55,775 nucleotides of DNA from Aureimonas sp. Leaf427 (GTDB lineage Bacteria > Pseudomonadota > Alphaproteobacteria > Rhizobiales > Rhizobiaceae), in contig NZ_LMQW01000011.1 of the NCBI RefSeq assembly GCF_001425485.1, positions 1-55,775 of the forward strand, written 5' to 3'. The notes beneath the pieces were generated by a model. It was not told the DNA's origin. It did no database searches and saw only the letters and a list, made by a program, of their open reading frames with translations. Of this stretch, positions 16,952 through 52,354 are shown piece by piece (the first letter of the stretch is position 1; each line of letters opens with the position of its first letter). The translations under genes and the position numbers were made by a program.

Positions 16952-17770
16952 ATGGCAGCATCGAACGGGCTGATGGCCGGCAAGCGCGGACTCGTGATGG
17001 GCGTGGCCAACAACCGCTCGATCGCCTACGGCATCGCCAAGGCCCTGACGGACGCCGGCGCGGAGATCGCGCTGACCTACCAGGGTGACGCCCTGAAGAA
17101 GCGCGTCGAGCCCTTGGCGGCCGAGCTCAACGCCTTCGTCGTCGGCCATTGCGACGTTTCCGACGCCGCCACGATCGACGCCTGCTTCGACACGATCGCA
17201 GAGCGCTGGGGCAAGATCGACTTCCTCGTCCACGCGATCGGCTTCTCCGACAAGGACGAGCTGACCGGCCGCTACGTCGATACGAGCGAGGCGAACTTCT
17301 CCAAGACGATGCTGATCTCGGTCTACTCGTTCACGGCCGTTGCGCAGCGCGCGGAAAAGCTGATGACCGACGGCGGCTCGATGGTCACGCTGACCTATTA
17401 CGGCGCCGAAAAGGTCATGCCGCACTATAATGTGATGGGCGTCGCGAAGGCTGCGCTGGAGGCCTCCGTGCGCTATCTCGCGGTCGATCTCGGCGGCAAG
17501 GCGATCCGCGTCAACGCGATCTCGGCCGGCCCGATCAAGACGCTCGCCGCCTCCGGCATCGGCGACTTCCGCTACATTCTGAAGTGGAACGAGTACAACT
17601 CGCCGCTGAAGCGCACCGTGACGATCGACGAGGTCGGCAATTCCGCGCTCTACCTCCTGTCCGATCTTTCCACCGCCGTCACCGGCGAAATCCACCATGT
17701 CGATTCCGGCTATCACACGGTCGGCATGAAGGCCGTGGACGCTCCCGACATCTCGGTCGTGAAGGACTGA
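16952..17770 (+). CDS. fabI: Enoyl-[acyl-carrier-protein] reductase (NADH)
   Basis: 272 residues. It reduces enoyl-ACP in the last step of each fatty-acid elongation cycle. The short-chain dehydrogenase fold has GVANNRSIAYGIAKAL (cofactor loop), CDVSDAATID and the FabI active site YYGAEKVMPHYNVMGVAKAAL with Tyr-x6-Lys. The C-terminus has GPIKTLAASGIGDF. I use ATG at 16952; an ATG at 16895 would add 19 residues. Its stop overlaps the likely start of the next gene. Confidence 0.95.
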   Translation: MAASNGLMAGKRGLVMGVANNRSIAYGIAKALTDAGAEIALTYQGDALKKRVEPLAAELNAFVVGHCDVSDAATIDACFDTIAERWGKIDFLVHAIGFSDKDELTGRYVDTSEANFSKTMLISVYSFTAVAQRAEKLMTDGGSMVTLTYYGAEKVMPHYNVMGVAKAALEASVRYLAVDLGGKAIRVNAISAGPIKTLAASGIGDFRYILKWNEYNSPLKRTVTIDEVGNSALYLLSDLSTAVTGEIHHVDSGYHTVGMKAVDAPDISVVKD

Positions 17771-18387
17771 CGATCTCCGATCTCGCCAGCCTCAGCGATC
17801 TCCCCCGCTTCTATCTCTGCCGCCACGGGCAGACCGACTGGAACGCCGAAGGGCGGCTCCAGGGGCAGGAGGAGATCGACATCAACGAGCGCGGCCGCGC
17901 GCAGGCCCGCCGCAACGGCCGCGTGCTCGCCGAGCGCCTGGGCGCGGACGCATCCACGTTCCGCTTCCTGGCGAGCCCCATGCGGCGCACGCGCGAGACG
18001 ATGGAGATCGTCAGGGCCGCGATGGGGCTCGACCCCGCCGCCTACGAGACGGACGAGCGGCTGTTGGAGCTGAGCTTCGGCGATTGGCAGGGCTCGACGC
18101 TGCGCGAGGTCGAGACGCTCGCGCCCGATCTGATCGCGGCGCGCGAGGCCGCCAAATGGGTCTTTCGCCCGCCCGGCGAGACGGCGGAGAGCTACGACAT
18201 GCTGGCCGGGCGCGTGGCGCCGGTCTTCGCCGAGTTGAAGGGCCCGACCGTGATCGTCGCCCATGGCGGCACGATCCGGTCTTTCCTCAAGCTCTATACG
18301 GGCCTTGCGCCGAGCGAAGCGGCGCATCGTCCGATCCCGCAGGATCGGTTCATCGAAGTCGTGGACGGCACGCTGTCCTGGCTCTGA
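17767..18387 (+). CDS. Histidine phosphatase family protein with non-standard start
   Basis: About 206 residues. The phosphohistidine motif LCRHGQTDWNAEGRLQG is near the N-terminus, with later SPMRRTRETM, LLELSFGDWQG and VIVAHGGTIRSF, so this is a phosphoglycerate-mutase-like phosphatase; substrate unknown. There is no ATG, GTG or TTG between deep inside fabI (ATG at 17584, 61 codons back) and the RHG motif. Candidate starts are the CTG at 17767, which overlaps the fabI stop as CTGA, or the ATC at 17773, six bases after AAGGA. Coordinates use the CTG. Confidence 0.85.
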   Translation: MTISDLASLSDLPRFYLCRHGQTDWNAEGRLQGQEEIDINERGRAQARRNGRVLAERLGADASTFRFLASPMRRTRETMEIVRAAMGLDPAAYETDERLLELSFGDWQGSTLREVETLAPDLIAAREAAKWVFRPPGETAESYDMLAGRVAPVFAELKGPTVIVAHGGTIRSFLKLYTGLAPSEAAHRPIPQDRFIEVVDGTLSWL

Positions 18388-18412
18388 GAGCCGGTTCGAG
18401 CGATCGACGGGT

Positions 18413-18649
18413 TCAGGCGCGAACGGCTTCCACGGGGCCGACGATCACATGGGCTTCCATGCCGGGACCGACGGCGTCGTAGTCGAAGCTGCCGGGCAGG
18501 CTGTAGGTGGAGCCGTCGGCGAAGACGAGCAGCGCGCGATCGCGGTCGACCTCGGCGATGATGCCGCTCTTCTCCTCGGCGCAGGCCGGGATCGTCAGGG
18601 CGACGCAGAGAAACGAGCTGGCGAAGAATGCGACGATCTGCTTCGTCAT
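18413..18649 (-). CDS. DUF1344 small periplasmic protein
   Basis: 78 residues: a signal peptide (MTKQIVAFFASSFLCVALTIPACA) and a ~54-residue domain reading SGIIAEVDRDRALLVFADG, STYSLPGSFDYDAVGPGM and a HVIVGPV end. This is the DUF1344 pattern. Function unknown. GAGGACAGG precedes the ATG. It is convergent with the phosphatase and divergent from aroC. Confidence 0.82.
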   Translation of the reverse strand: MTKQIVAFFASSFLCVALTIPACAEEKSGIIAEVDRDRALLVFADGSTYSLPGSFDYDAVGPGMEAHVIVGPVEAVRA

Positions 18650-18807
18650 AACCTGTCCTCCTCGGCCGACCCTGCGGCACGAAACCTGTTGAACCCTGCC
18701 ACCCGCGCCCGCAAACCCCTTGCGGACCGTAGCCATCCACGCACCATCCGGGCCGATTGTGGCGGTTTGCGACACCGATCGGCCTTCGTGGCATCCCGTT
18801 ACAAAAT

Positions 18808-18835
18808 TTGACGCGCGACGACGCCCTGACATAAA
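18808..18835 (+). promoter_or_regulatory. Candidate promoter for aroC
   Basis: TTGACG, 16 bases, CATAAA, ending 82 bases before the aroC ATG, in a region of lower GC than the surroundings. Good match to an alphaproteobacterial sigma-70 promoter. Confidence 0.5.
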
Positions 18836-18917
18836 CCCCGAGCCTGCCGGCCGAAGCGACCCGGCGCACCGAGCGCCGACCCGCAGAGCGCCGATCAACG
18901 AAGCGAACGCCCGCCCC

Positions 18918-20011
18918 ATGTCCCACAACACCTTCGGCCATCTCTTCCGCGTGACGACCTGGGGCGAGAGCCATGGACCGGCGATCGGCTGCGTCGTCGA
19001 CGGCCTGCCACCCGGCCTCTCCTTTTCGCAAACCTACCTTCAAGACTTCCTTAACAAGCGCCGTCCCGGTCAGTCCCGATTCACCACGCAGCGGCGCGAG
19101 CCGGACGAGGTGCGCGTTCTCTCCGGCACGATGCCGGGCGAGACCGAGGGCGAGCTGATCTCGACGGGAACGCCGATCGCGCTGGAAATCCAGAATGTCG
19201 ATCAGCGCTCCAAGGACTATTCCGACATTGCCCAGCGCTACCGCCCGGGCCATGCCGACATCGCCTACGACATGAAATACGGCGTGCGCGATTATCGCGG
19301 CGGCGGGCGGTCCTCGGCGCGCGAGACGGCCTGCCGGGTCGCGGCAGGAGCGCTGGCCCGGCTCGTCCTGCCGGACGTCGCGATCCGCGGAGCCCTCGTG
19401 AAGATCGGCACGATCGCCATCGACCGCGCGCGCTGGGACGATGCCGAGATCGACCGCAACCCGTTCTTCTGTCCCGATGCCGAGACGGCCGCGCTCTGGG
19501 AGATCCATCTCGACGCCGTGCGCAAGTCCGGCTCCTCGGTCGGCGCGGTGGTCGAGGTCACGGCGACGGGCGTGCCGGGCGGGCTCGGCGCCCCCCTCTA
19601 TGCCAAGCTCGACACCGACATCGCGGCCAACCTCATGTCGATCAACGCCGTGAAGGGCGTCGAGATCGGCAACGGCTTCGAGGCGGCCGAGCTTTCCGGC
19701 GAGGCGAATGCCGACGAGATCCGCATCGGCGCGGACGGACGGCCGGAGTTTCTCTCCAACAATGCCGGCGGCATTCTCGGCGGCATCTCGACGGGACAGC
19801 CGATCGTCGCGCGCTTCGCGGTCAAGCCCACCTCCTCCATCCTCACCCCGCGCCGCTCGATCGATGCGGCGGGCCAGGAGGTGGACGTGATGACCAAGGG
19901 CCGGCACGACCCTTGCGTCGGCATCCGCGCGGTGCCGATCGGCGAGGCGATGCTGGCCTGCGCGCTGGCGGACCATGTGCTTCGCGATCGCGGCCAGACG
20001 GGGCGGATGCG

Positions 20012-20015
<4 letters not shown>
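18918..20015 (+). CDS. aroC: Chorismate synthase
   Basis: 365 residues. FMN-dependent last step of the shikimate pathway. Signatures: [71 protein letters not shown] and [13 protein letters not shown]. The ATG at 18918 gives the normal [19 protein letters not shown] opening. Its TGA overlaps the GTG of the next gene (GTGA). Confidence 0.98.
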
Positions 20016-20938
<923 letters not shown>

Positions 20939-20958
20939 GCCCCAGGAAGGAACTCCCC

Positions 20959-21234
20959 ATGCCATCGGACACGACGCTCGCCGCCCTGCCGGCCGACGAT
21001 TCGGACATCAAGCGCATGAGCTTCGAGGAAGCGCTCTCGGGGCTGGAAAGCATCGTCTCCGATCTCGAGCGCGGCGATGTGCCGCTCGACATCTCCATCC
21101 GCATCTACGAGCGCGGCGAGAAGCTGAAGAACCATTGCGAGCGCCTGCTCTCGGCCGCCGAGGACAAGGTGGAGAAGATCAAGCTCTCCCGGGCCGGCAA
21201 GCCGACCGGCGCCGAGCCGCTCGATCCGGCCTGA
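20959..21234 (+). CDS. xseB: Exodeoxyribonuclease VII small subunit
   Basis: 91 residues. The helical-hairpin domain [20 protein letters not shown] and [26 protein letters not shown] (in parts) is diagnostic. With XseA it degrades single-stranded DNA; xseA is not in the window. The deacetylase-xseB-dxs order is widespread in the order. AGGAA precedes the ATG. Confidence 0.93.
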
Positions 21235-21434
21235 CGTGTCCGGCGGGTCCGAAGCGACGCCAGGCTGCGGGGATCGCAACGCGCGGCCCGCGCCGTCTCG
21301 TAAGGCGTCCGACACGACGGGACTTGATCGCGCCGGGTTTTGCATAATCTAAGCACTCCGAGTTTCCCCGAAGCGCAAGGCAAGGCGCGAGGCCAGCGGC
21401 CTTCAGCCGGGGGACCGCCATCGACGAAAGGTGG

Positions 21435-23360
21435 ATGATCCACGTGCCGGATATCTCTGAGACGCCCCTGCTCGACACGATCGACACGCCCGCCGACCTG
21501 CGCCGGCTGAAGGAGAGCGATCTCCGGCAGGTCGCCGACGAGCTGCGCACCGATCTCATCGACGCGGTGTCGCGCACCGGCGGGCATCTGGGCGCCGGCC
21601 TCGGCGTGGTCGAGCTGACCGTGGCATTGCACTACGTCTTCGACACGCCGGACGACCGGCTGATCTGGGACGTCGGCCATCAGGCCTATCCGCACAAGAT
21701 CCTGACCGGCCGGCGCAAGGGCATGCGCACCGTGCGCCAGGAGGGCGGGCTGTCCGGCTTCGCCAAGCGCACCGAGAGCGAATACGACCCGTTCGGCGCC
21801 GGCCACTCCTCGACCTCCATCTCGGCCGGGCTCGGCATGGCCGTCGCCCGCGATCTCGACGGCGGCGCGCGCAACGTCGTCGCCGTGATCGGCGACGGCT
21901 CCATGTCGGCGGGCATGGCCTACGAGGCGATGAACAATGCCGGCGCGCTCGACGCCCGGCTGATCGTCATCCTCAACGACAACGACATGTCGATCGCCCC
22001 GCCGACCGGCGCGATGAGCGCCTATCTGGCGCGCCTCGTCTCCAGCAAGACCTATCGCGGCCTTCGCGAGAGCGCCAAGAAGGCCTCCAAGATCCTGCCC
22101 GGCTTCATGCGCGAGAGCGCCCGCAAGACCGAGGAATACACGCGCGGCTTCTTCACCGGCGGCACCCTCTTCGAGGAGCTCGGCTTCTACTATGTCGGCC
22201 CGATCGACGGCCACGATCTCGACCATCTCCTGCCCGTCCTCAAGAACGTGCGCGACGCCAAGGACGGGCCGATCCTCGTCCATGTCGTGACCCAGAAGGG
22301 CAAGGGCTACGGTCCCGCCGAGACCTCCGCCGACAAGTATCACGGCGTCTCGAAGTTCGACGTCGTCACGGGCGCGCAGGCCAAGGCCAAGGCCAATGCG
22401 CCGAGCTACACGAGCGTCTTCGCCGAAAGCCTCGTTCAGGAGGCGCGGCTCGACGAGAAGATCGTCGCCGTGAACGCCGCCATGCCGGGCGGCACGGGCC
22501 TCGACCTCTTCGGCGAGGCCTTCCCGACCCGCACCTTCGACGTCGGCATCGCCGAGCAGCACGCCGTGACCTTCTGCGCCGGCCTTGCTTCCGAAGGCTA
22601 CAAGCCCTTCGCCGCGATCTACTCGACCTTCCTCCAGCGTGCCTACGACCAGATCGTCCACGACGTCGCGATCCAGAGCCTGCCCGTGCGCTTCGCGATC
22701 GACCGGGCCGGCTTCGTCGGCGCGGACGGCCCGACCCATGCCGGCTCCTTCGACACGGGCTTCCTCTGCCCCCTGCCCGGCATGGTCGTCATGGCCGCCA
22801 GCGACGAGGCGGAGCTGCGGCACATGGTTCGCACGGCGGTCGCCTATGACGACGGCCCCATCTCCTTCCGCTATCCCCGGGGCAACGGCACGGGCGTCGA
22901 TCTGCCCGAGCGCGGCGAGGTGCTGGAGATCGGCCGGGGCCGGATCGTGCGCGAGGGCACCAAGGTCGCGATCCTCTCCTTCGGCTCGCGCCTCGCCGAC
23001 GCGGTCGCCGCCGCCGAAGAGCTCGAGACCTTCGGCCTCTCCACGACCGTCGCCGACGCGCGCTTCGCCAAGCCCCTCGACGCCGATCTCGTGACACGGC
23101 TGGCGCGGGACCACGAGGTCCTGATTCTTCTGGAAGAGGGCGCGAGCGGCGGCTTCGCCGCGCAGGTCCTCCAGTTCATGGCGGCGCGCGGGCTTCTCGA
23201 TCAGGGTATCAAGGTGCGCCCGATGACGATGCCCGATCTCTTCGTCGACCATGCCAATCCCGACGCGATGATCCGCCAGGCCGGCCTCGACAAGTCCGGC
23301 ATCGTCGACACCGTCTTCAAGGCGCTGGGCGACAGCGCCCGGCGGGTGATGCAGGCTTAA
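21435..23360 (+). CDS. dxs: 1-deoxy-D-xylulose-5-phosphate synthase
   Basis: 641 residues. The TPP enzyme that starts the MEP pathway by joining pyruvate and glyceraldehyde 3-phosphate. Motifs: [21 protein letters not shown] (in parts), [17 protein letters not shown], the TPP site [43 protein letters not shown] and [23 protein letters not shown] precedes the ATG. About 200 bases upstream are non-coding; they include a TTGATC and a CATAAT, but spaced too closely to call a promoter. Confidence 0.98.
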
Positions 23361-23440
23361 AACGGCTCTAAACGGGCGGGAGGAGGGTCGGAACGCCCTC
23401 CGGCCTTGCCATTTGCAGCGCGACGCCGCATGACCCGGCC

Positions 23441-24205
23441 ATGGCAGCCACCGAAGAACAGCATCTTTCCCGCGTGCGGCTCGATCAGCTCGTCGCCGAG
23501 CGGGGCCTCGTCGCGAGCCGTGCGCGGGCGCGCGACGCGATCCTGCGCGGTCATGTGCGCGTGAACGGGCAGGTCGTGACCAAGCCCAGCCTCAATGTCG
23601 AGCCCGACTCCCAGCTCGATCTCGACGATCCCGCCGCCGACTTCGTCTCGCGCGGCGGGCTCAAGCTCGACGCGGCCCTCGACGCCTTCGGCATCGACGT
23701 CGCCGGCCGCTCGGCGCTCGACGTCGGCGTCTCCACCGGCGGCTTCACCGATTCGCTCTTGAAGCGCGGCGTCGCCCATGTCGTGGCGATCGATGTCGGC
23801 CACGGCCAGCTCCACCCGCGCATCGCCGCCGACGAGCGCGTCAGCGCCATCGAGGGGCTGAACGCCCGCGATCTCGACGAGGATCATCTCGGCGGCCACG
23901 CCATCGACCTCGTCGTCGCCGATGTCAGCTTCATCTCGCTCCGGCTCGCGCTGCCGCCCGCGCTCGATCTCGCCGAGCCCGGCGCCGATGCCGTGCTCCT
24001 GGTGAAGCCGCAGTTCGAGGCCGGCCGCGAAGCCATCGCCAAGAACGGCCTCCTGCGCGATCCCGACAGCGCGACGGCGGTCGCCGAGAGTCTCAAGGAC
24101 TGGCTGGGCGAGCAGGAGGGCTGGACGGCCATCGCGCTCATCCCCTCCTCGATCGAGGGCGGGGACGGCAACCGGGAATTCCTCCTCCACGGCCGCAAGG
24201 CATGA
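23441..24205 (+). CDS. tlyA: TlyA family RNA methyltransferase / hemolysin A-like
   Basis: 254 residues. An N-terminal S4 RNA-binding domain (RLDQLVAERGLVASRARARD in parts, VRVNGQVV) is followed by an FtsJ-like SAM methyltransferase domain with VSRGGLKLDAALDAF, ALDVGVSTGGFTDSLL, VVADVSFISL and LVKPQFE. Known TlyA enzymes 2'-O-methylate rRNA; the exact target here is inferred. The stop overlaps the next gene in an ATGA. Confidence 0.93.
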   Translation: MAATEEQHLSRVRLDQLVAERGLVASRARARDAILRGHVRVNGQVVTKPSLNVEPDSQLDLDDPAADFVSRGGLKLDAALDAFGIDVAGRSALDVGVSTGGFTDSLLKRGVAHVVAIDVGHGQLHPRIAADERVSAIEGLNARDLDEDHLGGHAIDLVVADVSFISLRLALPPALDLAEPGADAVLLVKPQFEAGREAIAKNGLLRDPDSATAVAESLKDWLGEQEGWTAIALIPSSIEGGDGNREFLLHGRKA

Positions 24206-25428
24206 GCCGCACGCTTCTCATCGACCATCTCGGCGCCAAGGGCGACGGCGTCGCGCTGGAGGACGGCGCGCCGCTCTACGTGCCCTTCACCCTGCCGGGC
24301 GAGCGGGTCGAGGCCGAAATGTCCGGCGCGCGCGGCCGGCTCGTCCTCGTCGAGACGCCCTCGCCCCGCCGCGTCGAGCCGCCCTGCCCGCATTTCGGCA
24401 CCTGCGGCGGCTGCGATCTCCAGCATGCCGATGCCGCGCTCTACCGCGCCTACAAGCGCGATCTCGTCGTCTCCGCGCTGGCGAGCCGCGGCATCGAGAC
24501 CGAGGTGGCGCCGCTCGTTCCCGGCCGCCGCGGCACGCGCCGCCGCGCCGTCTTCTCCGGCATGAAGGACGGCAACCGCATCGACTTCGGCTTTTTCGGC
24601 GCTCTGACGAACACGATCGTGCCGATCGAGACCTGCCTCGTCGTGGTGCCCGAGATCGCGCGCCGCCTGTCCGATCTGCGCGCCCTCGCGCTCCTCGTCG
24701 CCGGCCGGGCCACGCCGATGCGCATGGTGGTGACGGCGAGCGACGTCGGCTTCGACATTTCCCTCTCCGACACCGCCAAGATCACCGACACGCTGCGCCA
24801 GTCGATCGTCGCCTTCGCCCTGCGCCAGGATTTCGCGCGCGTGACGGTGGGCGACGAGACGATCGTCGAGACGCGCCGTCCGACGATCGACGTCGCGCGC
24901 TCCACCGTGCCCCTGCCGCCCGGCGGTTTCCTCCAGGCGACGGCGGAGGCCGAGGAGGCCATGTCGGCGCTCGTCACGCGCCATCTCGCCGGCTCGAAAT
25001 CCGTCGCCGACCTCTTCGCCGGCATCGGCACGTTCGGCCTGCGGCTCGCGCGCACCTCGGCCGTGCATGCGGTGGAAAGCGAGGAAAAGGCGCTCGCCTC
25101 GCTCGACGCCGCGCGCCGCAAGTCGCAAGGGCTGAAACCCGTGACGACCGAGCGCCGCGATCTCTATCGCCGGCCGATGACCGCCAAGGAACTGTCGCGC
25201 TTTCAGGGCGTCGTCTTCGATCCGCCGCGCGCGGGCGCCGAGGCGCAGGTCCACGAACTCGCGCTCTCGAAGGTCCGGACGGTCGCCGCCGTCTCCTGCA
25301 ATCCCGCGACGCTGGCCCGCGACCTTCGCGTCCTCGTCGACGGCGGCTTCCGCCTTCTCGGCGTGACGCCCATCGACCAGTTCCACTGGTCTCACCATGT
25401 CGAGGCGGTCGCTCTCCTCGAGCGCTAG
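24202..25428 (+). CDS. Class I RNA methyltransferase (RlmC/RlmD/TrmA-like, m5U type)
   Basis: 408 residues. An N-terminal TRAM-like beta-barrel (LIDHLGAKGDGVA ... VPFTLPGERVEAEM) is followed by iron-sulfur cysteines in CPHFGTCGGCDLQHA, the SAM motif VADLFAGIGTFGLRLA, a VFDPPRAGAE motif IV and the catalytic Cys in VSCNPATLARDL. This set marks the family that makes 5-methyluridine in rRNA or tRNA; which position cannot be told. Coupled to tlyA by ATGA. Confidence 0.92.
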   Translation: MSRTLLIDHLGAKGDGVALEDGAPLYVPFTLPGERVEAEMSGARGRLVLVETPSPRRVEPPCPHFGTCGGCDLQHADAALYRAYKRDLVVSALASRGIETEVAPLVPGRRGTRRRAVFSGMKDGNRIDFGFFGALTNTIVPIETCLVVVPEIARRLSDLRALALLVAGRATPMRMVVTASDVGFDISLSDTAKITDTLRQSIVAFALRQDFARVTVGDETIVETRRPTIDVARSTVPLPPGGFLQATAEAEEAMSALVTRHLAGSKSVADLFAGIGTFGLRLARTSAVHAVESEEKALASLDAARRKSQGLKPVTTERRDLYRRPMTAKELSRFQGVVFDPPRAGAEAQVHELALSKVRTVAAVSCNPATLARDLRVLVDGGFRLLGVTPIDQFHWSHHVEAVALLER

Positions 25429-25524
25429 CCTAGACCCTCGACCCAAGGCACATGACGGGCCGGTCATCCGTGGAGCGCGGTCTCCCGGCAGGACCCGGCG
25501 ATCTTGCAGGGAGTGACCGGCCGA

Positions 25525-26166: not shown

Positions 26167-26226
26167 TCTTCGAAGGATGCGCCTGGCATCACCCCGAGAT
26201 CGCCGCCCGCGCCGCTATCCCCGCTC

Positions 26227-28775: not shown

Positions 28776-28835
28776 GGTTCGGGTCCTCCTTGCCGCCCGC
28801 GCGAGTGCCGGCAGCCCCGCCATGATCGCTATGCG

Positions 28836-29842: not shown

Positions 29843-29849
29843 GACGTAT

Positions 29850-39066: not shown

Positions 39067-39114
39067 CTCGCTCGACCGCTGAAAACCCGTCACCAAGACT
39101 CAAACCCGAAACGC

Positions 39115-43549: not shown

Positions 43550-43625
43550 GGGTCTGGCTCCCTCCCCCCTCCCGTTTCGGGAGAAGGCCGGCGCGAGGCC
43601 GGAGGCGTCGTTGGAGCCGATCGCC

Positions 43626-44066
43626 TCAGCGCCGCGCGGGCCGCGGGCGCGGCTTGCCGGGGCGGGGCGCCGGAGGGTTTCGATCGGCAGGCGGCAGTGT
43701 CCGCCGCTCTTCGACCACGGCACCGATCGTGTCAAGAACCGCGGCCATGTCGGCGCGAACGAGAGCGTTCGCAAAGCGCAGGACGCGGTATCCCTCGGCC
43801 TCCAGCGCGGCATCCCGCCTCGCGTCGCGCTCCGCGTTCGCCGGCCGGGCATGCTGCTCGCCGTCGAGCTCGATGATGAGACGAAGCGCCGGGGCGACGA
43901 AATCGGCGAGATAGGGTCCGATGCGGATCTGCCGCTCGAACAAGGCGGCCATGTCGGGCTGCCTCCGGCGGAGCGCCTGGAACAGCGTCTCCTCCAGCGC
44001 CGTGCCGTCGGCGCGGATGCGGCGCCGGACGGCGGCCGCCCGGCGCTCGAGTCGGGTCATCGCCAT
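43626..44066 (-). CDS. DUF559 (Vsr/restriction-endonuclease-like fold) protein
   Basis: 146 residues. Core: [62 protein letters not shown]. The Asp in ADF, and the Glu and Asp/His in IIELDGEQH, form the PD-(D/E)xK-type site of DUF559. The C-terminus is Pro/Arg-rich. Cellular role unknown. ATGs at 44066 and 44060 are both possible. It lies between ypfJ and glyS. Confidence 0.88.
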
Positions 44067-44094
44067 CGGCGAGACCCGGGATGGGCACGAGCCC

Positions 44095-45000
44095 TCAGAT
44101 GTCGCCCTTGGTCGTGTCGCACTGGGCCATGTCGCCGGTCTCGAAGCCGCGCTTGAACCAGGTCTGGCGCTGCGCGGACGTGCCGTGGTTGAAGCTGTCG
44201 GGCACGACGTAGCCCTGGCTCTCCTTCTGCAGCGTGTCGTCGCCGATCTGCTGCGCGGCGTTCAGCGCCTCGTCGATGTCGCCCTCCTCCACATAGCCGG
44301 AGGCCTGGCTATCATGCGCCCAGATCCCGGCATAGCAGTCGGCCTGAAGCTCGACGCGCACCGACAGCGCGTTCGCCTCGGTCTCCGAGGAGGCCTGCCG
44401 GCGGGCCTGATCGAAGGCGGGCAGAATCCCCTGCAGGTTCTGGACGTGATGGCCGACCTCGTGCGCCACGACATAGGCCTGCGCGAAGTCGCCGGGCGAG
44501 TTCAGCTGGTCGCGAAGCTGCCGGAAGAAGGTCGTGTCGATATAGAGCTTCTGGTCGCCGGGACAGTAGAACGGCCCCGAGGCCGAACTCGCCTGCCCGC
44601 AGGCGGAGGCGACGCCGCCGCTGAAGAGCACGAGCGTCGGCAGCTGATAGGTCTGGCCCTCCGCCTGGAAGCGCTTCGTCCAGACATCCTCGGTGTCGGC
44701 CAGAACCGTCGCGACGAAATCGTCGGTCTCGTCCGCCGCGCCCTGCACGCCCGGGCCGTTCGCCGTCTGCGTGACGGTGCCGCCGCCCTGCTGGCCGCCC
44801 ATGAACACGTCGATCGGGTTCACGCCGAAGCCGAACCAGAGCACCGCGCCGATGATGATCATGCCGACGATGCCGATGCCGCCGCCACCGGCGCCCCGGC
44901 GCATGGGAATGCGGAAGCCGCCGCCCCCGGGCATTCCGCCCCCGTCCCCGCCGCGGCGGTCCTCGATCTGGCTGGATTGCCGCCGGCCCTTCCACTGCAT
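44095..45000 (-). CDS. YpfJ-type neutral zinc metallopeptidase
   Basis: 301 residues. A Gly-rich basic N-terminus (GGDGGGMPGGGGF) precedes one transmembrane helix (IGIVGMIIIGAVLWFGFGV). The peptidase domain has FYCPGDQKLYIDTTFF, the zinc site VAHEVGHHVQNLQG and ELQADCYAGIWAH, where the Glu is the third ligand. It is probably membrane-anchored with the catalytic part in the periplasm. Substrates are not known. It lies between glyQ and glyS. Confidence 0.92.
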   Translation of the reverse strand: MQWKGRRQSSQIEDRRGGDGGGMPGGGGFRIPMRRGAGGGGIGIVGMIIIGAVLWFGFGVNPIDVFMGGQQGGGTVTQTANGPGVQGAADETDDFVATVLADTEDVWTKRFQAEGQTYQLPTLVLFSGGVASACGQASSASGPFYCPGDQKLYIDTTFFRQLRDQLNSPGDFAQAYVVAHEVGHHVQNLQGILPAFDQARRQASSETEANALSVRVELQADCYAGIWAHDSQASGYVEEGDIDEALNAAQQIGDDTLQKESQGYVVPDSFNHGTSAQRQTWFKRGFETGDMAQCDTTKGDI

Positions 45001-45091
45001 CGATCACATCCTTGTCAGAAGTCCCCGCTCCCCAACGCACGAGATCGCGTTCGGTGCCGTGGGAACTCGCATCGATGATAGAATGAGGAGA

Positions 45092-46039
45092 TCAGGCAGC
45101 CCGAACCAGCGACTGGCCGCCCGCTTCCGTCAGAAGAAACGCCTCGCCGCAGGCCTTGGCGAGCGTGCGCACGCGCAGGATGTAGCTCTGCCGCTCCGTC
45201 ACGGAAATCACGCCGCGCGCGTCGAGGAGGTTGAAGGCGTGGCTCGCCTTGATCGCCTGATCGTAGGCGGGAAAGACGCAGAGATGCAGGGCGCCGGGCG
45301 CGGCGGGGGCGCCGGCGGCGAGCAGCCGGCCGCATTCCGTCTCCGCGTCGATGAAGTGCTGATGCAGGATGGCCGTGTCGGCATATTCGAAATTGTAGCG
45401 CGAGAACTCGCGCTCCGACTGCAGGAACACGTCGCCATAGGTCACCTTCTCGGCGCCCTCTCGGCCGTTGAAGTTGAGGTCGTAGACGTTGTCGACGTTC
45501 TGAACGTACATGGCGAGCCGTTCGAGCCCGTAGGTCAGCTCGCCCGCCACGGGCGCGCATTCGATGCCGCAGACCTGCTGGAAATAGGTGAACTGCGAGA
45601 CCTCCATACCGTCGCACCAGCACTCCCAGCCGAGGCCCCAGGCGCCGAGCGTCGGGCTTTCCCAGTCGTCCTCGACGAAGCGGATGTCGTGGAGCTTGGG
45701 ATCGACGCCAATCGCGGCGAGCGAGCCGAGATAGAGCTCCTGCAGGTTGGACGGGTTCGGCTTCAGGATGACCTGATACTGGTAGTAGTGCTGGAGCCGG
45801 TTCGGGTTCTCGCCGTAGCGCCCGTCCTTCGGCCGGCGCGAGGGCTGGACATAGGCCGCGTTCCAGGGCTTCGGGCCCAGCGCGCGCAGCGTCGTCGCGG
45901 GATGGAAGGTGCCCGCGCCGACCTCCATGTCGTAGGGCTGCAGCACGACGCAGCCGTAATCGGCCCAGTAGCGGTGCAGCGCCAGGATCAGCCCCTGGAA
46001 GGAGCGCTCGGGCGCCATGTGCGGGGCGGCATCGGTCAT
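45092..46039 (-). CDS. glyQ: Glycine-tRNA ligase alpha subunit
   Basis: 315 residues. Catalytic alpha chain: [31 protein letters not shown] (in parts), [23 protein letters not shown] (in parts), [32 protein letters not shown] and [12 protein letters not shown] at 46039 is used; an in-frame ATG at 46048 would add three residues. About 90 bases separate it from ypfJ. Confidence 0.97.
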
Positions 46040-46385
46040 GTCGGGCATCCAGCGGACAGGGGCCGGCATCGACGCACCACGGCATCGGGCGGCAAGAAGG
46101 TTCCCCGGCTGTGCCACGCACGCCGCGAGCCGGTCAAGCCGGGAGCCGATCGCAGGGCCCATGAGGTCGCTTCGAAGAGAACGTCTACGTTGGCGCGAGG
46201 CGCCCCCCTCTGGCTTGCCAGCCATCTCCCCCTCAAGGGGGAGATCGGCGGCTGCAGCGGTCGAGCGAAACTGGAAGCGTTTGAGACAAGCCTGATCTCT
46301 CCCCTTGCGGGGGAGATGCCGGCAGGCAGAGGGGGGTGCTTCGCGCTACCCCATCACACTCGAACCGATGAAACCGCGCCCGAGT
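46040..46385. other. Intergenic region glyQ / small membrane protein (no gene)
   Basis: 346 bases that contain the full palindromic element at 46201-46340. The remaining 160 bases upstream of glyQ must hold its promoter or be read through; no clear hexamers or riboswitch-like structure were found. Confidence 0.5.
46201..46340. repeat. Palindromic intergenic element, full copy C
   Basis: The left arm CCCCCCTCTGGCTTGCC and CATCTCCCCCTCAAGGGGGA faces a right arm reading GGGGGAGATGCCGGCAGG and CAGAGGGGGG, with about 40 unrelated bases between. The same layout as 38942-39066, with more arm differences. It lies upstream of glyQ. Confidence 0.8.
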
Positions 46386-46580
46386 TCAATCCCGCTTCAG
46401 CCGATAGACCCCGTCCTCGCCGCGCACCAGCGTGCCCTGCGCGCCCGTCCGCAGTTCCTGTTCGGACCGGCGGTTGCGGTCGGCCAGCCGCACGGCTTCG
46501 CCCTTCAGCCGGTTGAACCCGTAATAGGCGGCGGCCCCGACGAGGCCGAAGAGGAAGAGTTGTGGCATGAGGTCGACCAT
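46386..46580 (-). CDS. Small single-helix membrane protein, hypothetical
   Basis: 64 residues. One hydrophobic N-terminal helix (LFLFGLVGAAAYYGFNRL) is followed by a charged region and a C-terminal GTLVRGEDGVYRLKRD. I do not know its function. Its place just after the S49 peptidase gene (89 bases) and the bias for sensible codons make it a likely real gene. Confidence 0.7.
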   Translation of the reverse strand: MVDLMPQLFLFGLVGAAAYYGFNRLKGEAVRLADRNRRSEQELRTGAQGTLVRGEDGVYRLKRD

Positions 46581-46669
46581 CAGATCCCGTCCCGCGACTA
46601 TGATACGCCCGCCGGTCCGCGTAAAGGCGTCCGCGCCTTCGCGAAGGCGCCCGGCTCTTCACGATCGGT

Positions 46670-47548
46670 TCAAAGACCGAAGCGGCTCCAGGCGAGGCGC
46701 TCCTCGGCGATCGCCGCCAGCCGCTCGGCCGCGCCGGCGCCCGCGAGATCCGCGCGAAAGCCTCCCGCCCCGTCCAGCACGCTCTGGCCGACGAGCCGGC
46801 GGCCGAGAAAGCCGCGGCTCGGCTGGATGACGACGGGCTTCACCTTGTCGCCGAAGCGCTCCCGCAGCACGGAGCGCAGATCGCCCAGCCGGTCGACGAG
46901 CCCGAGTTCGAGACCTCGGAGCCCCGACCAGAACTGCCCGGTGAAGAGTTCCTCGCTCTCGGCGAGCTTGCCCCCGCGCCGCGACTTGACGAGGTCGATG
47001 AAGGTCTCGTGGATCTCGCGCTGCAAGGACAGGAGATGGGCGACGTCCTCCTCGCGCTCCGGCCGGAACGGGTCGAGCACGGCCTTGTTGCGCCCGGACG
47101 TGTGGACGCGCCGCTCGATGCCGAGCTTCTGCAGCGCCTCCACGAAGCCGAAGCCGCCGGAGACGACGCCGATCGAGCCGACGATCGAGGACGGGTCCGC
47201 GATGATCTCGTCGCCCGCGCAGGCGATCATGTAGCCGCCGGAAGCCGCGACATCCTCGACGAAGACGAGGACGGGCTTCTTCTTCTCCTCGGAGAGATCG
47301 CGGATGCGCTTGAAGATCAGCCGCGACTGCACGGGCGAGCCGCCCGGCGAGTTCACCGAGATCGCCACGGCCGGCGCGTCCTTCATGTCGAAGGCCTTCT
47401 CCAGAAGACCCGCGACTCCGGCCAGCGACAGGCTCGGCCGCAGCGGGCCGGACGCCGCCATGATCGTGCCGCTCAGGCGCACCACCGGAACGGTGACCGT
47501 GGTCTTGCGAAAGCGCTTGGGAAGAAGGGTCTTGAGGGAAAAGGCCAA
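46670..47548 (-). CDS. S49 (SohB/SppA-like) serine peptidase
   Basis: 292 residues. S49 core: VPVVRLSGTI, AVAISVNSPGGSPVQS, VEDVAASGGYMIACAGDEI with the nucleophile Ser in ASGGY, DPSSIVGSIGVVSGGF, and LGLVDRLGDL. The Lys general base is inferred, probably the one in the TSGRNKAVLDPF region. There is no clear signal peptide. No ATG suits the N-terminus; I use the TTG at 47548, eight bases after AGGCGG. It lies downstream of the MITE-like element. Confidence 0.9.
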   Translation of the reverse strand: MAFSLKTLLPKRFRKTTVTVPVVRLSGTIMAASGPLRPSLSLAGVAGLLEKAFDMKDAPAVAISVNSPGGSPVQSRLIFKRIRDLSEEKKKPVLVFVEDVAASGGYMIACAGDEIIADPSSIVGSIGVVSGGFGFVEALQKLGIERRVHTSGRNKAVLDPFRPEREEDVAHLLSLQREIHETFIDLVKSRRGGKLAESEELFTGQFWSGLRGLELGLVDRLGDLRSVLRERFGDKVKPVVIQPSRGFLGRRLVGQSVLDGAGGFRADLAGAGAAERLAAIAEERLAWSRFGL

Positions 47549-47651
47549 GGGTCGGTCCGCCTGTTGCGATGAGAACCGGCCGCGCCGGACGATCCCGATG
47601 TAGGCACGCCGTGCCGCCGCGCAAAGATGGAGCGCGCGGTGCGGGCCTGTC

Positions 47652-47832
47652 ATACCGACGAGCCCTTGAATTAACCTGTTTCGCAGGAGCGGCCTTCGCC
47701 GTGGACGAGGAAGGCGATGGGAGCGGCCTGTCGGCCGTGACCCGAGCCTGACGACGTCCACGACGGAGGAGGCCCGGCCCTGCGGGTGGGCCTTGGCCCA
47801 CGAAACAGGTCAATTCAAGGGCTCGTCGGTAT
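47652..47832. mobile_element. MITE-like element with 32-bp terminal inverted repeats
   Basis: The left end 47652-47683 and the right end 47801-47832 are inverted copies of each other with one mismatch in 32 bases (ATACCGACGAGCC... / ...GGCTCGTCGGTAT). Matching stops sharply at both sides. The 117-base core has no gene but has a nested pair GTGGACG / CGTCCAC. TA dinucleotides lie one base inside each end. The right end coincides with the last base of the TrmN6-like stop codon. Confidence 0.75.
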
Positions 47833-48647
47833 CAGATCTCGAAGCCCACCGTCGCGCGCCCCTCCCCGATCGCCGTCGCGACATCGCTCGGCCGTCCGTC
47901 CTCCTCGGCCAGGACGATCGGCGGCAGGAGGGAAAGCGGCGCCTTGGAGCCGCGCCGGGCGGAGACGAGGATGCGGCTCGCTCGTCGCCCGGCGCTTGGC
48001 TGCACCGGCCGGATGCGGATGTCGCCGTAGCGTCCCTCTCCCGCCTCCAGGATCGCCGGCAGATTGTCCGGCCGCGCGACGAGAAAGAGCGTGCCGCCGT
48101 GGGCGAGCAGCGCGGAGGCAGAGGCGAGCCAGCGCTGCAGGAACCCCGCTTCGGGCATCGCCCGCGCCGCATCGCGCCGCGCATCGGGCGAGGCCCGCCC
48201 GCCCGCCGGATGAAAGGGCGGGTTCGTCAGGATCAGGCCGAAGGCGCCGTCCTTAAGCCCCGCAGCCTCCCGCCCCGCGCGGCCCGCCAGGAGATCGGCG
48301 ACCGCCACCGACAGGCGCGGCGCCAGCGCGGCGTTCTCCTCGAGCATCAGAGAGCGGCGCGAGAGGTCCGCCATGGCCGGGTCCTTCTCGACGAGCGTCA
48401 CGGCAAGGCCGGGGCAGCGCGCGGCGGCGGCGAGCCCGACGACGCCCGAACCCGAGCCGAGATCGGCGGCCCGCCCTTCGCTCTCCGGCGGCGGGCAGGC
48501 GGCCAGAAGCAAGGCGTCGAGCCCGGCGCGAAAGCCCGTCCTCGGCTGGAGAAGATGGAAGGCGCCGCGCAAGAAGGCGTCGCGGCTCGTCTCCGGGTCG
48601 TCGCCCCCCGGGTCGCGCCCCCTCGGATCGCGGCCTTCCCCGGTCAG
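47832..48647 (-). CDS. trmN6: tRNA1(Val) (adenine(37)-N6)-methyltransferase-like, non-standard start
   Basis: About 271 residues from a CTG at 48647. SAM motif DLGSGSGVVGLAAAARCPG, then VEKDPAMADL, LILTNPPFHPAGG with the NPPF N6-adenine motif, and VARPDNLPAIL. The family opens with a DAFL ... L.QPRxGxRAGxDAxLLAA motif, and here DAFLRGAFHLLQPRTGFRAG is in frame, so the start must lie before 48587. No ATG, GTG or TTG exists there before the upstream stop region; the CTG at 48647 overlaps the DUF2007 stop (CTGA) and has AAGGA six bases upstream. A TTG at 48572 would cut the motif. Confidence 0.85.
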   Translation of the reverse strand: MTGEGRDPRGRDPGGDDPETSRDAFLRGAFHLLQPRTGFRAGLDALLLAACPPPESEGRAADLGSGSGVVGLAAAARCPGLAVTLVEKDPAMADLSRRSLMLEENAALAPRLSVAVADLLAGRAGREAAGLKDGAFGLILTNPPFHPAGGRASPDARRDAARAMPEAGFLQRWLASASALLAHGGTLFLVARPDNLPAILEAGEGRYGDIRIRPVQPSAGRRASRILVSARRGSKAPLSLLPPIVLAEEDGRPSDVATAIGEGRATVGFEI

Positions 48648-48862
48648 GAGAGTTCCTTGCCGAGATCGGCATCGCGCAGGATGCGCCGCGCCTGCTCGAT
48701 GCGGTCGGCGTCCACCAGGATGCGGCGCGGCAATACGCCGATCGAGCCGTCGAGAATGCTCATATGGCTGTCGGCGACGAAATGTCCGATTCCGGCATCG
48801 GTCAGAAGCGAATCGACGAAGGAGATCGTCACGACGTCGTTGGATCGCAGGAGTTCGATCAT
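48644..48862 (-). CDS. DUF2007 domain protein
   Basis: 72 residues reading MIELLRSNDVVTISFVDSLL, AGIGHFVADSHMSIL, IGVLPRRILV and DADRIEQARRILRDADL. This is the short DUF2007 ('putative signal-transducing') domain, found beside the methyltransferase and polyprenyl synthase genes in this order. Function unknown. The AGGAG-like GGACGACATG start at 48862 is clear of the neighbouring divergent gene. Confidence 0.85.
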   Translation of the reverse strand: MIELLRSNDVVTISFVDSLLTDAGIGHFVADSHMSILDGSIGVLPRRILVDADRIEQARRILRDADLGKELS

Positions 48863-49215
48863 GTCGTCCGAAACGTCCCGTGCTCGCTCATGTCCTTGGC
48901 CTCTCTTCGTTTTGCCGGTGCGCCGGCTCTTTTCGGCCGGCACACGCAAGTTTGCGGGATGCGCCGGCGATGGATGAGGGTGCGCCTCTTGTTTTTACGG
49001 TCCACCCCGTGTCTTGCAGGCGCGAAGACCGAGGGAAGCATGGCATCCGGGCGGCCCGGCGGGCAAGATGGCGCGGCGCGAGCGGCGCAAACGTGCGGCG
49101 AAGAGGCAGAGCGTCCGTCATCCGCCTTAACGCCGCGCCGCCGCGCCCCATGTTCAAGGCTTGCTGCCCTAGGCTTCCCGTGATTAGTCCTCGCGCGAAC
49201 AACGGAGAGACCATC
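48863..49215. other. Divergent intergenic region DUF2007 / polyprenyl synthase
   Basis: 353 bases with no gene. It should hold the divergent promoters. A GTGCGCCGGC ... GCCGGCAC hairpin lies at about 48917-48943, and a TTGTTTTTACGG patch near 48990; neither is enough for a call. Confidence 0.45.
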
Positions 49216-50229
49216 GTGAGTGTTGCCAACCCCGCCCGTGAGACGCCCGCCCGGGCCTCGATCGAGCCGATCGTCCGGCTGACATCCGCCGCGATGGGCG
49301 AGGTCAACGCGATGATCCTCGCCATGGCCGGATCGAACGTCACCCTGATCCCGGAGATCGCCGAGCACCTGATCTCGTCCGGCGGCAAGCGCCTGCGGCC
49401 CATGCTGACGATCGCCTCCGCCATCGCCCATGGCTACAAGGGCTCCGCCCATGTGAAGCTCGCCGCCAGCGTCGAGTTCATGCACACCGCGACGCTGCTG
49501 CACGACGACGTCGTGGACGAGAGCGATCTTCGCCGGGGGCGCGAGACCGCGCGCATGATCTGGGGCAACCAGGCGAGCGTGCTCGTCGGCGACTTCCTGC
49601 TCGGACAGGCCTTCAAGACCATGGTCGAGGTCGGCTCGCTGGAAGCCCTGCGCATCCTGTCGGGCGCCTCCGCCGTCATCGCCGAGGGCGAGGTCTGGCA
49701 GCTCTCCGCCGCCAAGCACATGACGACGACCGAGGCCGACTATCTCCAGGTGATCGAGGCCAAGACCGCCGCGCTCTTCGCCGCCGCGACCGAGGTCGGC
49801 CCCGTCGTCGCCGGCTCCGGCCCGGAAGCTTGCGCGCGCATGCGCGCCTACGGGCTCAATCTCGGCCTCGCCTTCCAGCTTCTCGACGACGTGCTCGACT
49901 ATCGCGGCACGGCCAAGGCGCTCGGCAAGAATGTCGGCGACGATTTCCGCGAGGGCAAGATCACGCTTCCCGTCATCCTCGCCCACCAGCGCGGAACGGA
50001 GGCCGAGCGCGCCTTCTGGCGCGAGGCGATGGAGAAGGGCGCCAACGACGACGCGGCGCTTCTCGAGGCGCAGCGCCTTCTGGAGCGCCACGGCGCGCTG
50101 GAGGAGACGATCGCGCGCGCCCGTGCCTTCGGCGAGATCGCCTTCGAATCCGCCGCCGCCCTGCCGCGTTCGGAGGCCCGCGAGGCGCTGATCGAGGTCG
50201 TCGCCTTCAGCATCGAGCGCATCAACTAG
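49216..50229 (+). CDS. ispB: Polyprenyl (octaprenyl-type) diphosphate synthase
   Basis: 337 residues. Builds the isoprenoid side chain of ubiquinone. First Asp-rich motif LLHDDVVDESDLRRG, second LLDDVLDYRG; also SSGGKRLRPMLTI, GDFLLGQAFK and GKNVGDDFREGKITLP. The start is GTG at 49216 with GGAGAG upstream; there is no closer ATG. The chain length cannot be told from the sequence. Confidence 0.93.
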   Translation: MSVANPARETPARASIEPIVRLTSAAMGEVNAMILAMAGSNVTLIPEIAEHLISSGGKRLRPMLTIASAIAHGYKGSAHVKLAASVEFMHTATLLHDDVVDESDLRRGRETARMIWGNQASVLVGDFLLGQAFKTMVEVGSLEALRILSGASAVIAEGEVWQLSAAKHMTTTEADYLQVIEAKTAALFAAATEVGPVVAGSGPEACARMRAYGLNLGLAFQLLDDVLDYRGTAKALGKNVGDDFREGKITLPVILAHQRGTEAERAFWREAMEKGANDDAALLEAQRLLERHGALEETIARARAFGEIAFESAAALPRSEAREALIEVVAFSIERIN

Positions 50230-50479
50230 CCGCGATCCCACGTCGCAGGAACCGCAACCACGCCTTGCGGCCCCAAAATGGTCATCCTGCGGGCACAACG
50301 ACGTGGTGGCGCGTGTACGACGAGGATCGTGGCGTTGCAGAGGCAATTGCCGTAAACATCTTCGCCCGCAATCAAAACGGCCACGGGCAGGCCGGGCGCG
50401 ACCGTGAAGACGCCAGCCGAACCCTTCCGACCTCGCGGGAACGACGAGTCGGCTCCAGAGAGGATCTCATCCCTTGCCC

Positions 50480-52354
50480 ATGAAGCGTCCAGCCCGTCTC
50501 GCCCTCGCCGCCCTGATCGGGCTCTCGCCGCTGTCGGCCGGATCGGTCCTTGCCGCCGGCACGGACCTTGCGGCGAGCAAGGCGGGCATCGGCTCGGCGC
50601 AGTCGCTGTCGGGCGCCTATCTCGCGGCGAAGTCGGCCCAGGCCGGCGGCGATCTCTCGGCGGCCACCACCTTCTATTCCGATGCGCTGACGCTCGATCC
50701 GACCTCCGAGCCGCTGCAGCAGGATGCGATGTTCGCCTTCCTCGCCGCCGGCAATTTCGAGCAGGCCGCCGAGCTCGCCGCCAAGATTCGCGACACGCCG
50801 GAGGCCGGAAAGGTCGCCCGCCTCGCGCTCGGCATCGATCTCCTGCGCCGCGGCAGCTACACGCCCGCCATCGCCGAGTTCGACATCGTCGATCCGAGCG
50901 ACCTCGACGCGCTCCTGATCGGCCATCTCTCCGCCTGGGCCGACACGGGCGCCGGCAATGTCGACGGCGCCCTCTCGCGCCTGAAGGAGCTTCAGGGCGC
51001 GACCTGGTATCCGATCTTCAACGACTATCAGGCCGGCCTCATCGCCTCGCTCGCCGGCAAGCCCGACATCGCGCGCAAGTCCTTCGCCGCCGTGATCGAC
51101 GATTCCGCCAATGCCCAGGTCTCGCCGGATGCGTTCCTCGCCGCCGCCGAGGCGCTGGCCCGGCTGGAAGCCCGCGACGGCAAGAAGACCGCCGCCGTCG
51201 CCGCGCTCGACAAGGGCCTCGACGTCGCCGACACCTACGATCCGCTGCTGCACCTGAAGGCGCGCATCGAGAAGGGCGAGACGATCGAGCCCGCCCTGTC
51301 CAGCGTCAAGGAAGGCGCGGCGGAGACGCTCTACATCCTCGGGCAGGCGATCAACCGCGGCGAGGGCCAGCAGGTCGCCCTCCTCTATTTTCAGCTCGCC
51401 CGCGCGCTCGCGCCGACCGACCCGAACCTGCTCATGGCACTGGCCGGCATCGCCGAGCGCGGCGAGCATGTGGACGAGGCGATCGCCTACTATCGCCAGA
51501 TTCCGAAGGACTCCGCCCTCTATCGCGCCGCCCGCCTCCAGACCGGCCTCGACCTCTGGTATGCCGAGCGCAAGGACGAGGCCAAAGCCCATCTGCGCAA
51601 GGCCGTCGCGGACTATCCGCACGATCTCCAAGCCTATCTGGCGCTCGCCGACGTGCTTTCGGCCGACAAGGATTATGCCGAATCCGCCAAGGCGCTGGAC
51701 AAGGCGGTCGAGATCGCCGTGCCCGCCAAGAAGGAAACCTGGAATCTCTACTACCAGCGCGGCATCGCCCACGAGCGGCTGAAGCAGTGGGACAAGGCCG
51801 AGCCGGACTTCCGCAAGGCGCTGACCCTCTCGCCCGACCAGCCGCAGGTGCTGAACTATCTCGGCTATTCCATGGTGGACATGGACCGGAACCTCGACGA
51901 GGGCCTGGACATGATCAAGCGCGCGGTCGAGCTTCGCCCGAACGACGGCTACATCATCGATTCGCTCGGCTGGGCCTACTACCGCCTCGCGCGCTACGAC
52001 GACGCCGTCGAGCAGCTCGAGCGCGCCGTTCTGATCACGCCGGTGGACCCGACGATCAACGACCATCTCGGCGACGCCTACTGGCGCGTCGGGCGCACCC
52101 GCGAGGCGCGCTTCCAGTGGAGCCGCGCGCTCGTCGGCGAGCCAAAGCCCGAAGCGGCCGAGGTGACGAAGATCGAGGCCAAGCTGAAGGACGGCCTGCC
52201 GCCGGAGACGCGCAAGGCCGAGATCGACGGCTCCGGCAAGCCGCTGAAGGCGGGCGCCGCCGAGGCCCTCGCGACCGCCGCGGACGCGGCGCAGCCGAAG
52301 GCGCCGGGCGCCGCGCCGGCGGTCCAGCCCAAAACCGAAGGCGTGCCGAACTGA
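50480..52354 (+). CDS. Secreted tetratricopeptide-repeat protein
   Basis: 624 residues. Signal peptide (KRPARLALAALIGLSPLSAGSVLA in parts), then TPR-type helices through the whole length; clear repeats are YLALADVLSADKDYAESAKAL, YYQRGIAHERLKQWDKAEPDF, VLNYLGYSMVDMDRNLDEGLDM (in parts) and DSLGWAYYRLARYDDAVEQLE. A Pro/Ala tail ends it. Probably a periplasmic or outer-membrane-associated scaffold; partner unknown. A TTG at 50474 is also in frame. Its stop overlaps the presumed start of ispE. Confidence 0.9.
   Translation: MKRPARLALAALIGLSPLSAGSVLAAGTDLAASKAGIGSAQSLSGAYLAAKSAQAGGDLSAATTFYSDALTLDPTSEPLQQDAMFAFLAAGNFEQAAELAAKIRDTPEAGKVARLALGIDLLRRGSYTPAIAEFDIVDPSDLDALLIGHLSAWADTGAGNVDGALSRLKELQGATWYPIFNDYQAGLIASLAGKPDIARKSFAAVIDDSANAQVSPDAFLAAAEALARLEARDGKKTAAVAALDKGLDVADTYDPLLHLKARIEKGETIEPALSSVKEGAAETLYILGQAINRGEGQQVALLYFQLARALAPTDPNLLMALAGIAERGEHVDEAIAYYRQIPKDSALYRAARLQTGLDLWYAERKDEAKAHLRKAVADYPHDLQAYLALADVLSADKDYAESAKALDKAVEIAVPAKKETWNLYYQRGIAHERLKQWDKAEPDFRKALTLSPDQPQVLNYLGYSMVDMDRNLDEGLDMIKRAVELRPNDGYIIDSLGWAYYRLARYDDAVEQLERAVLITPVDPTINDHLGDAYWRVGRTREARFQWSRALVGEPKPEAAEVTKIEAKLKDGLPPETRKAEIDGSGKPLKAGAAEALATAADAAQPKAPGAAPAVQPKTEGVPN

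What the first reader, a model, noticed from the sequence alone, without database searches (positions are those of the whole stretch)
17767..52354. Three genes appear to start at CTG (or ATC) inside CTGA stop-start overlaps
The histidine phosphatase (17767), the TrmN6-like methyltransferase (48647, minus) and ispE (52351) each have a conserved N-terminal motif in frame but no ATG, GTG or TTG between that motif and the upstream gene's stop. In all three, a CTG overlaps the upstream TGA as CTGA, exactly where neighbouring pairs show ATGA (thrB/rnhA, coxF/ctaG, tlyA/RNA methyltransferase, dehydrogenase/crotonase, prlF/yhaV, ispE/moaB) or GTGA (aroC/deacetylase). AAGGA lies six bases before the CTG of trmN6. 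For the phosphatase AAGGA is better spaced to an ATC at 17773. This suggests that translational coupling tolerates CTG as a start here. Standard gene callers would miss or shorten these genes.
Basis: partly seen in the sequence, partly recalled or inferred. Interest (0 to 1): 0.75.

Follow-up and report, generated by a model that had tools for sequence, protein, structure and literature searches.

The report
Core genes without standard start codons
In a bacterium related to Aureimonas, a few housekeeping genes lack the usual start codon and probably begin at a rare one such as CTG, right where the previous gene stops; related species show the same kind of loss in other genes, so it is unlikely to be a sequencing mistake in every case.

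Summary
The histidine phosphatase (17767), trmN6-like methyltransferase (48647, minus) and ispE (52351) have no ATG, GTG or TTG between the upstream stop and the conserved N-terminus, and each has an in-frame CTG inside CTGA. All relatives compared have a standard start codon there (29/29, 29/29 and 28/28). Codon usage places the coding boundary at the CTG (phosphatase) or two codons before it (ispE); trmN6 is weak. CTGA itself is no signal: 133 of 142 in-frame CTGA junctions in sampled parts of four genomes have a standard start nearby. Similar losses exist elsewhere: tilS has no usable standard start in A. glaciei and two other congeners, two of which share CTGCTGACG over the upstream stop, while the window's genome and one congener have GTG there; ispE has none in eight named Mesorhizobium records. 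Best reading: rare non-standard initiation, most likely CUG coupled to termination, in an order whose initiator tRNA has one of three conserved G-C pairs changed. Start identity (CUG, AUY or ACG) is unmeasured, and trmN6 may be ordinary.

The parts
16895..17770 (+). fabI-type enoyl-ACP reductase; its last codons GAC TGA create the CTGA
   Evidence: Pfam adh_short_C2 6.4e-93; sequence
17767..18387 (+). histidine phosphatase without nearby ATG/GTG/TTG start; candidate starts CTG 17767 or ATC 17773
   Evidence: Pfam His_Phos_1 3.1e-40; codon-usage boundary at 17767, D 23.5
17767..17770 (+). CTGA overlap of fabI stop and candidate CTG start; GAAGGA lies directly before it, 6 nt before ATC 17773
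20935..20938 (+). control CTGA (deacetylase stop / xseB frame) with an ordinary ATG 8 codons downstream
48644..48862 (-). DUF2007 gene upstream of trmN6
   Evidence: Pfam DUF2007 1.1e-23
47832..48647 (-). trmN6-like methyltransferase; CTG 48647 candidate start; TTG 48572 inside the motif; ATG 48672 in another frame
   Evidence: Pfam MTS 5.8e-13
50480..52354 (+). TPR protein gene; its last codons AAC TGA create the CTGA
   Evidence: Pfam TPR families
52351..53304 (+). ispE without a nearby standard start; CTG 52351 is the best near-cognate candidate
   Evidence: Pfam GHMP_kinases_N and _C; one match in the genome; codon-usage boundary 52345, D 41.8
53301..53846 (+). moaB-like gene starting with ATGA over the ispE stop (ordinary overlap)
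   Evidence: Pfam MoCF_biosynth 3.2e-35

Best explanation
ispE and the histidine phosphatase are intact genes whose ATG/GTG start was lost in this lineage; they are translated from a non-standard codon at or next to the upstream gene's stop. The most likely codon is the CUG in CUGA (ispE; phosphatase CUG or AUC), reached by ribosomes that have just terminated on the upstream gene. trmN6 may be a third case. Shown: absence of standard starts; coding signal of the leader up to the junction; a similar absence in tilS of congeners. Inferred: use of CUG, coupling, and a permissive role of the order's initiator tRNA, which has A29-U41 in place of G29-C41.
For: No standard start nearby. Leaders read as coding in this frame only: summed log-odds +9.8 against -22.1 and -5.2 (ispE), +5.5 against -15.4 and -9.5 (phosphatase), +1.7 against -12.4 and -15.3 (trmN6); 9.8 is reached by 1.6% and 5.5 by 7.6% of 2630 intergenic pieces of 24 codons, best of three frames (the phosphatase leader is only 13 codons, so that comparison is rough). 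No standard start in another frame that one indel would join to ispE or the phosphatase. No frameshift seen in 128 protein comparisons to this contig. tilS: no standard start upstream in the whole open frame of G003 (320 codons) or G004 (55 codons), none nearer than 358 codons in G005; G003 and G005 share CTGCTGACG at the ybgF stop, G004 has CTG ACT 19 bases after it; the window's own genome and G001 have GTG; tilS leaders of G003 and G005 also read as coding in frame (+8.1 and +1.6, other frames -11.6 or lower). ispE: 8 of the 17 Mesorhizobium loci examined, making up 8 of the 9 genes flagged among 299. Initiator tRNA stem TCAGG/CCTGA at 16 of 17 pattern sites, in 16 of 20 genomes.
Against: In the window's three genes the loss is private to this one species, so base errors are not excluded by conservation; one search tests gene bodies, not leaders. 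CTG is a common codon and 14% of junctions have in-frame CTGA. Published figures make CUG poor: 0.86% of AUG efficiency and 0.024% of bacterial starts (PMC11497404, one section read); in mycobacteria CTG was not enriched as a leadered start while ATT was (PMC4633059, passages). The C30-G40 tRNA's loss of discrimination comes from weaker preference for GUG/UUG, not better initiation on CUG (PMC11497404, passage), which weakens the tRNA idea. In Mesorhizobium ispE the column aligned with GTG/ATG is CTG in only 30 of 42 genomes and not NTG in 8, while ATT/ATC before it is kept in 40, so AUY may be the start there. In tilS of G003 and G005 ACG stands where an outgroup has ATG. A permease in the same genome lacks a standard start without an in-frame CTGA.
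Confidence: 0.55

Rival explanations
1. Translation starts at another near-cognate codon: ATC 17773 in the phosphatase, ATT/ATC in Mesorhizobium ispE, ACG in tilS.
For: GAAGGA is better spaced for ATC 17773; ATY kept in 40 of 42 Mesorhizobium genomes; tilS ACG aligns with an outgroup ATG; ATT but not CTG was enriched as a leadered start in mycobacteria (PMC4633059, passages).
Against: In ispE of the window CTG is the only NTG or ATN codon before the conserved AKIN motif; tilS of the window's genome and of G001 has GTG close by.
Confidence: 0.25
2. Sequence errors in this assembly removed ordinary start codons.
For: All three losses are private to this genome and lie in one contig; ispE has GTC where a congener has GTG; trmN6 has G-runs and an ATG (48672) in another frame; an error that itself destroyed a start codon is not excluded by any search.
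Against: No frameshift in 128 comparisons with this contig; tilS and Mesorhizobium ispE show similar losses in several independent genomes.
Confidence: 0.12
3. trmN6 alone: it starts at TTG 48572 within the motif, or at ATG 48672 with a real or apparent one-base shift.
For: TTG 48572 is in frame; a Jiella locus (L115) has MPISAMNSP in the other register, matching the window's ATG 48672 stretch; the coding boundary moves to 48614 in another run.
Against: TTG would drop conserved residues; the leader scores as coding only in the CTG frame.
Confidence: 0.45
4. Translation starts at GTG far upstream inside the preceding gene (52117, 17584).
For: The frames are open.
Against: Codon usage there is strongly non-coding (D 41.8 and 23.5); impossible for tilS in G003 and for ispE in eight Mesorhizobium loci, whose frames hold no standard start upstream.
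Confidence: 0.03

Closest known systems
Rare CUG-initiated bacterial genes
   Same: Non-standard start that differs from AUG at the first base
   Different: Here inferred in core genes, for tilS in several species of one genus, mostly at gene junctions; no N-terminus measured
-4 nt NTGA overlaps with termination-reinitiation coupling
   Same: Stop and candidate start share bases; passages of PMC12548453 call the class NTGA
   Different: The passages read of PMC10666635 name ATGA or GTGA; CTGA occurs 0 times in its main text
AUU/AUC starts such as infC (recalled)
   Same: Non-standard start in a housekeeping gene
   Different: infC-type autoregulation was not examined; the codon differs
Initiator tRNA M1 variant (C30-G40), PMC11497404
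   Same: One of the three conserved anticodon-stem G-C pairs is changed
   Different: Here the changed pair is 29-41 (A-U), natural and shared across the relatives that matched; its effect on CUG is untested

Membership tests
CUG-initiated gene | No standard start at the N-terminus | tested here: met
   ispE, phosphatase; trmN6 only if TTG 48572 is discounted
CUG-initiated gene | CTG in frame at the start of the coding signal | tested here: met
   (phosphatase exact, ispE boundary 2 codons upstream); trmN6 inconclusive
CUG-initiated gene | Protein N-terminus is Met at CTG | not testable with these tools
   needs proteomics or ribosome profiling
CUG-initiated gene | NTG exchange at the homologous start in relatives | tested here: inconclusive
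   tilS: GTG ACG in G001 against CTG ACG (G003, G005) and CTG ACT (G004), but distance to the motif varies and G000 has GTG CTG ACG; Mesorhizobium ispE mixed; not seen for the three window genes
-4 nt overlap with coupled reinitiation | Candidate start overlaps the upstream stop as NTGA | tested here: met
-4 nt overlap with coupled reinitiation | Downstream translation depends on upstream translation | not testable with these tools
   needs reporters
Initiator tRNA lacking the full set of three G-C pairs | Change in pair 29-41, 30-40 or 31-39 | tested here: met
   TCAGG/CCTGA stem, i.e. A29-U41; the conserved set is G29-C41, G30-C40, G31-C39 per PMC11497404

The most novel reading that the evidence does not exclude
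In Hyphomicrobiales the natural A29-U41 initiator tRNA relaxes start-codon selection, so that CUG (and AUY) is a usable further start at coupled gene junctions; core genes such as tilS and ispE have therefore repeatedly lost standard starts, and gene callers that allow only ATG, GTG and TTG mis-annotate them across the order.
Probability: 0.22. Interest if true: 0.75.

Novelty: new variant of a known kind. Interest (0 to 1): 0.5.

Why it matters
If right, gene callers limited to ATG, GTG and TTG would truncate or miss core genes in these bacteria, and a natural initiator-tRNA variant gives a testable idea of why a normally avoided start codon is tolerated.

Tried and rejected
CTGA as a signal in itself: rejected. 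Of 142 in-frame CTGA junctions, 133 have a standard start near; of the other 9, five have one a little further on (G000 C12:33710, C12:387013, C1:383839; G003 61465; G005 667286) and four are the three window genes and A. glaciei tilS. A genome-wide CTG habit: rejected for the sampled 1.24 Mb of G000; 12 of 1036 genes exceed D 8 and most of these have a standard start near or another fault. The G003 61465 gene noted as a further case (notebook) matches TldD-like proteins whose ATG lies 40 codons on (the family name is recalled). I first read G003 trmN6 as lacking a start; it has GTG after GGGGAGGGGG. C1:433738 looks like another frame fault. An amino-acid permease (C12:115825; name recalled) lacks a standard start within 40 codons but has no in-frame CTGA, and no close relative was found to test it; kept as a counter-example. 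G005 tilS was not picked up by the gene finder. Dropped rows: L060 (no N-terminus) from the ispE table; L119 and L122 (motif not found) from the 80 named ispE loci. Literature: ten searches listed no report of CTG starts in these genes; many papers are not held. Samhita et al. 2012 is known to me by recall and as a reference entry; Hecht et al. 2017 was not held. On rereading I lowered the novel case from 0.25 to 0.22 because of the passage on GUG/UUG preference.
Full report
Observation. The three genes are as described. Each conserved reading frame runs up to the upstream gene's stop with no ATG, GTG or TTG on the way, and each has CTG inside CTGA. ispE is the sharpest case: one match in this genome, nearest standard starts 78 codons upstream inside the TPR gene or at codon 159. 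The phosphatase's first internal standard start lies beyond its RHG motif. trmN6 has a TTG inside its motif.

Relatives. The window is contig C11 of a 5.4 Mb genome; one congener, G003, has a contig of the same length (573469) as Aureimonas glaciei NZ_BMJJ01000002.1, so I take it to be that species. Six genomes of the genus are held. Loci were cut for 30 of 40 genomes per gene. All relatives compared have a standard start codon close to the N-terminus: 29 of 29 for the phosphatase, 28 of 28 for ispE, 29 of 29 for trmN6, and the 73 of 80 named loci in which trmN6 was found. So the losses in the window are private to it. In congeners the phosphatase's ATG or GTG lies about eight codons before RHG, downstream of the fabI stop; the GGA(C/T)TGA in G000, G001, G003 and G004 is the Asp-stop of FabI. 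For ispE, G003 and G005 read CTG ACG ATG, G004 reads CTG AGC GCC GTG, the window reads CTG AGC GCG GTC. For trmN6 the ATG of G001, G002 and G004 overlaps the DUF2007 gene in another register, and G003 has GTG after that gene's stop. The picture of ATGA replaced by CTGA is therefore not what the relatives show.

Is the leader translated? A codon-usage survey (D = log-odds lost between the best coding boundary and the best standard start) covered 1.24 Mb of this genome and about 0.4 Mb of each of three congeners: 12 of 1036, 2 of 347 (G003), 3 of 355 (G001) and 6 of 332 (G005) genes exceed D 8. ispE (41.8) and the phosphatase (23.5) are two of the four above D 20 in this genome. Their leaders score as coding only in this frame. 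trmN6 is weak: D about 5, and its boundary moves between runs. In the other frames no standard start runs open into ispE or the phosphatase, whereas trmN6 has ATG 48672 one register off. Protein comparison showed no frameshift in this contig (0 of 128 comparisons, from 886 redundant query proteins of three congeners, against 1 of 66 in C12 and 0 of 53 in C1); that speaks for gene bodies, not for leaders.

Independent cases. The only D>20 case in the sampled part of A. glaciei is tilS, at CTGCTGACG over the ybgF stop, with no standard start upstream in its frame. A second congener (G005, 64% identical protein) has the same nine bases and no standard start nearer than 358 codons; a third (G004) has CTG ACT 19 bases past the ybgF stop and no standard start upstream in its frame; the window's own genome and G001 have GTG; G002 has a GTG 57 codons before the motif. 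In an outgroup (G007) the junction reads CTG CTG ATG, so ACG has taken the place of ATG in G003 and G005. In ispE, 10 of 78 named loci evaluated (of 80) have no standard start within 45 codons before the motif: eight Mesorhizobium records, one Hyphomicrobiales MAG with nearly the same sequence (its contig begins about 41 codons before the match) and one Rhizobiaceae MAG; in the eight Mesorhizobium records there is none in the whole frame upstream. In a 17-locus Mesorhizobium set ispE accounts for 8 of the 9 genes above D 8 among 299; two other sets gave 3 of 168 and 10 of 484 above D 8, of which three (L193, L121, L151) have no standard start within 40 codons and were not resolved. A pattern search found the ispE leader in 42 of 146 genomes of that genus (the rest did not match and were not judged): the start column is CTG 30, GTG 2, TTG 2, CTT 2, CTA 2, CTC 1, CCC 1, CCG 1, GCG 1, preceded by ATT/ATC in 40 and ACT in 2. 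A non-standard start is very likely in this clade, but CTG or ATY is open; the CTG/CTT/CTC/CTA/TTG mix looks partly like an ordinary leucine codon.

Mechanism. CUG is a poor start (0.86% of AUG efficiency) and 0.024% of bacterial starts, as cited in PMC11497404 (one section and passages read); in mycobacteria CTG failed where ATT was enriched (PMC4633059, passages). The first paper reports that changing initiator-tRNA pair 30-40 removes discrimination against CUG, but through weaker preference for GUG and UUG rather than better use of CUG. In this genome and relatives the initiator tRNA has TCAGG/CCTGA, i.e. A29-U41, at 16 of 17 pattern sites (16 of 20 genomes matched; none of the sites is GGG/CCC); of six tRNAs read in full five are of this type and the sixth, a second site in G004, differs. 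That unusual initiator tRNAs occur in rhizobia is recalled (Samhita et al. 2012); the link to CUG starts is my inference. Coupling is suggested by the overlap with the upstream stop, not shown. NTGA is the commonest overlap class (PMC12548453, passages); CTGA occurs 0 times in the main text of PMC10666635.

Verdict.

Noticed in passing
L336:1483-1559 (G000:C3): Initiator tRNA gene with anticodon stem TCAGG/CCTGA, i.e. A29-U41 instead of G29-C41, shared by the relatives that matched.
   Followed up: partly
G000:C12 minus 115825: Permease-like gene with coding signal but no standard start within 40 codons; an in-frame ATT lies nine codons upstream of the boundary.
   Followed up: partly
G000:C1 433738: 708-codon frame whose coding signal starts without a standard start shortly after in-frame stops; looks like a frame fault or decayed gene.
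   Followed up: no
47652-47832: Inverted repeat, arms 47652-47683 and 47801-47832 (31 of 32 bases alike), downstream of trmN6, MITE- or REP-like.
   Followed up: partly
17771-17802: The phosphatase leader holds CGATCTC at 17771, 17778 and 17796, perhaps a local duplication.
   Followed up: no
L142 (Mesorhizobium erdmanii ispE): The start column is GCG; only an in-frame CTGA at the upstream stop and ATC/ATT codons remain as NTG or ATN candidates.
   Followed up: partly
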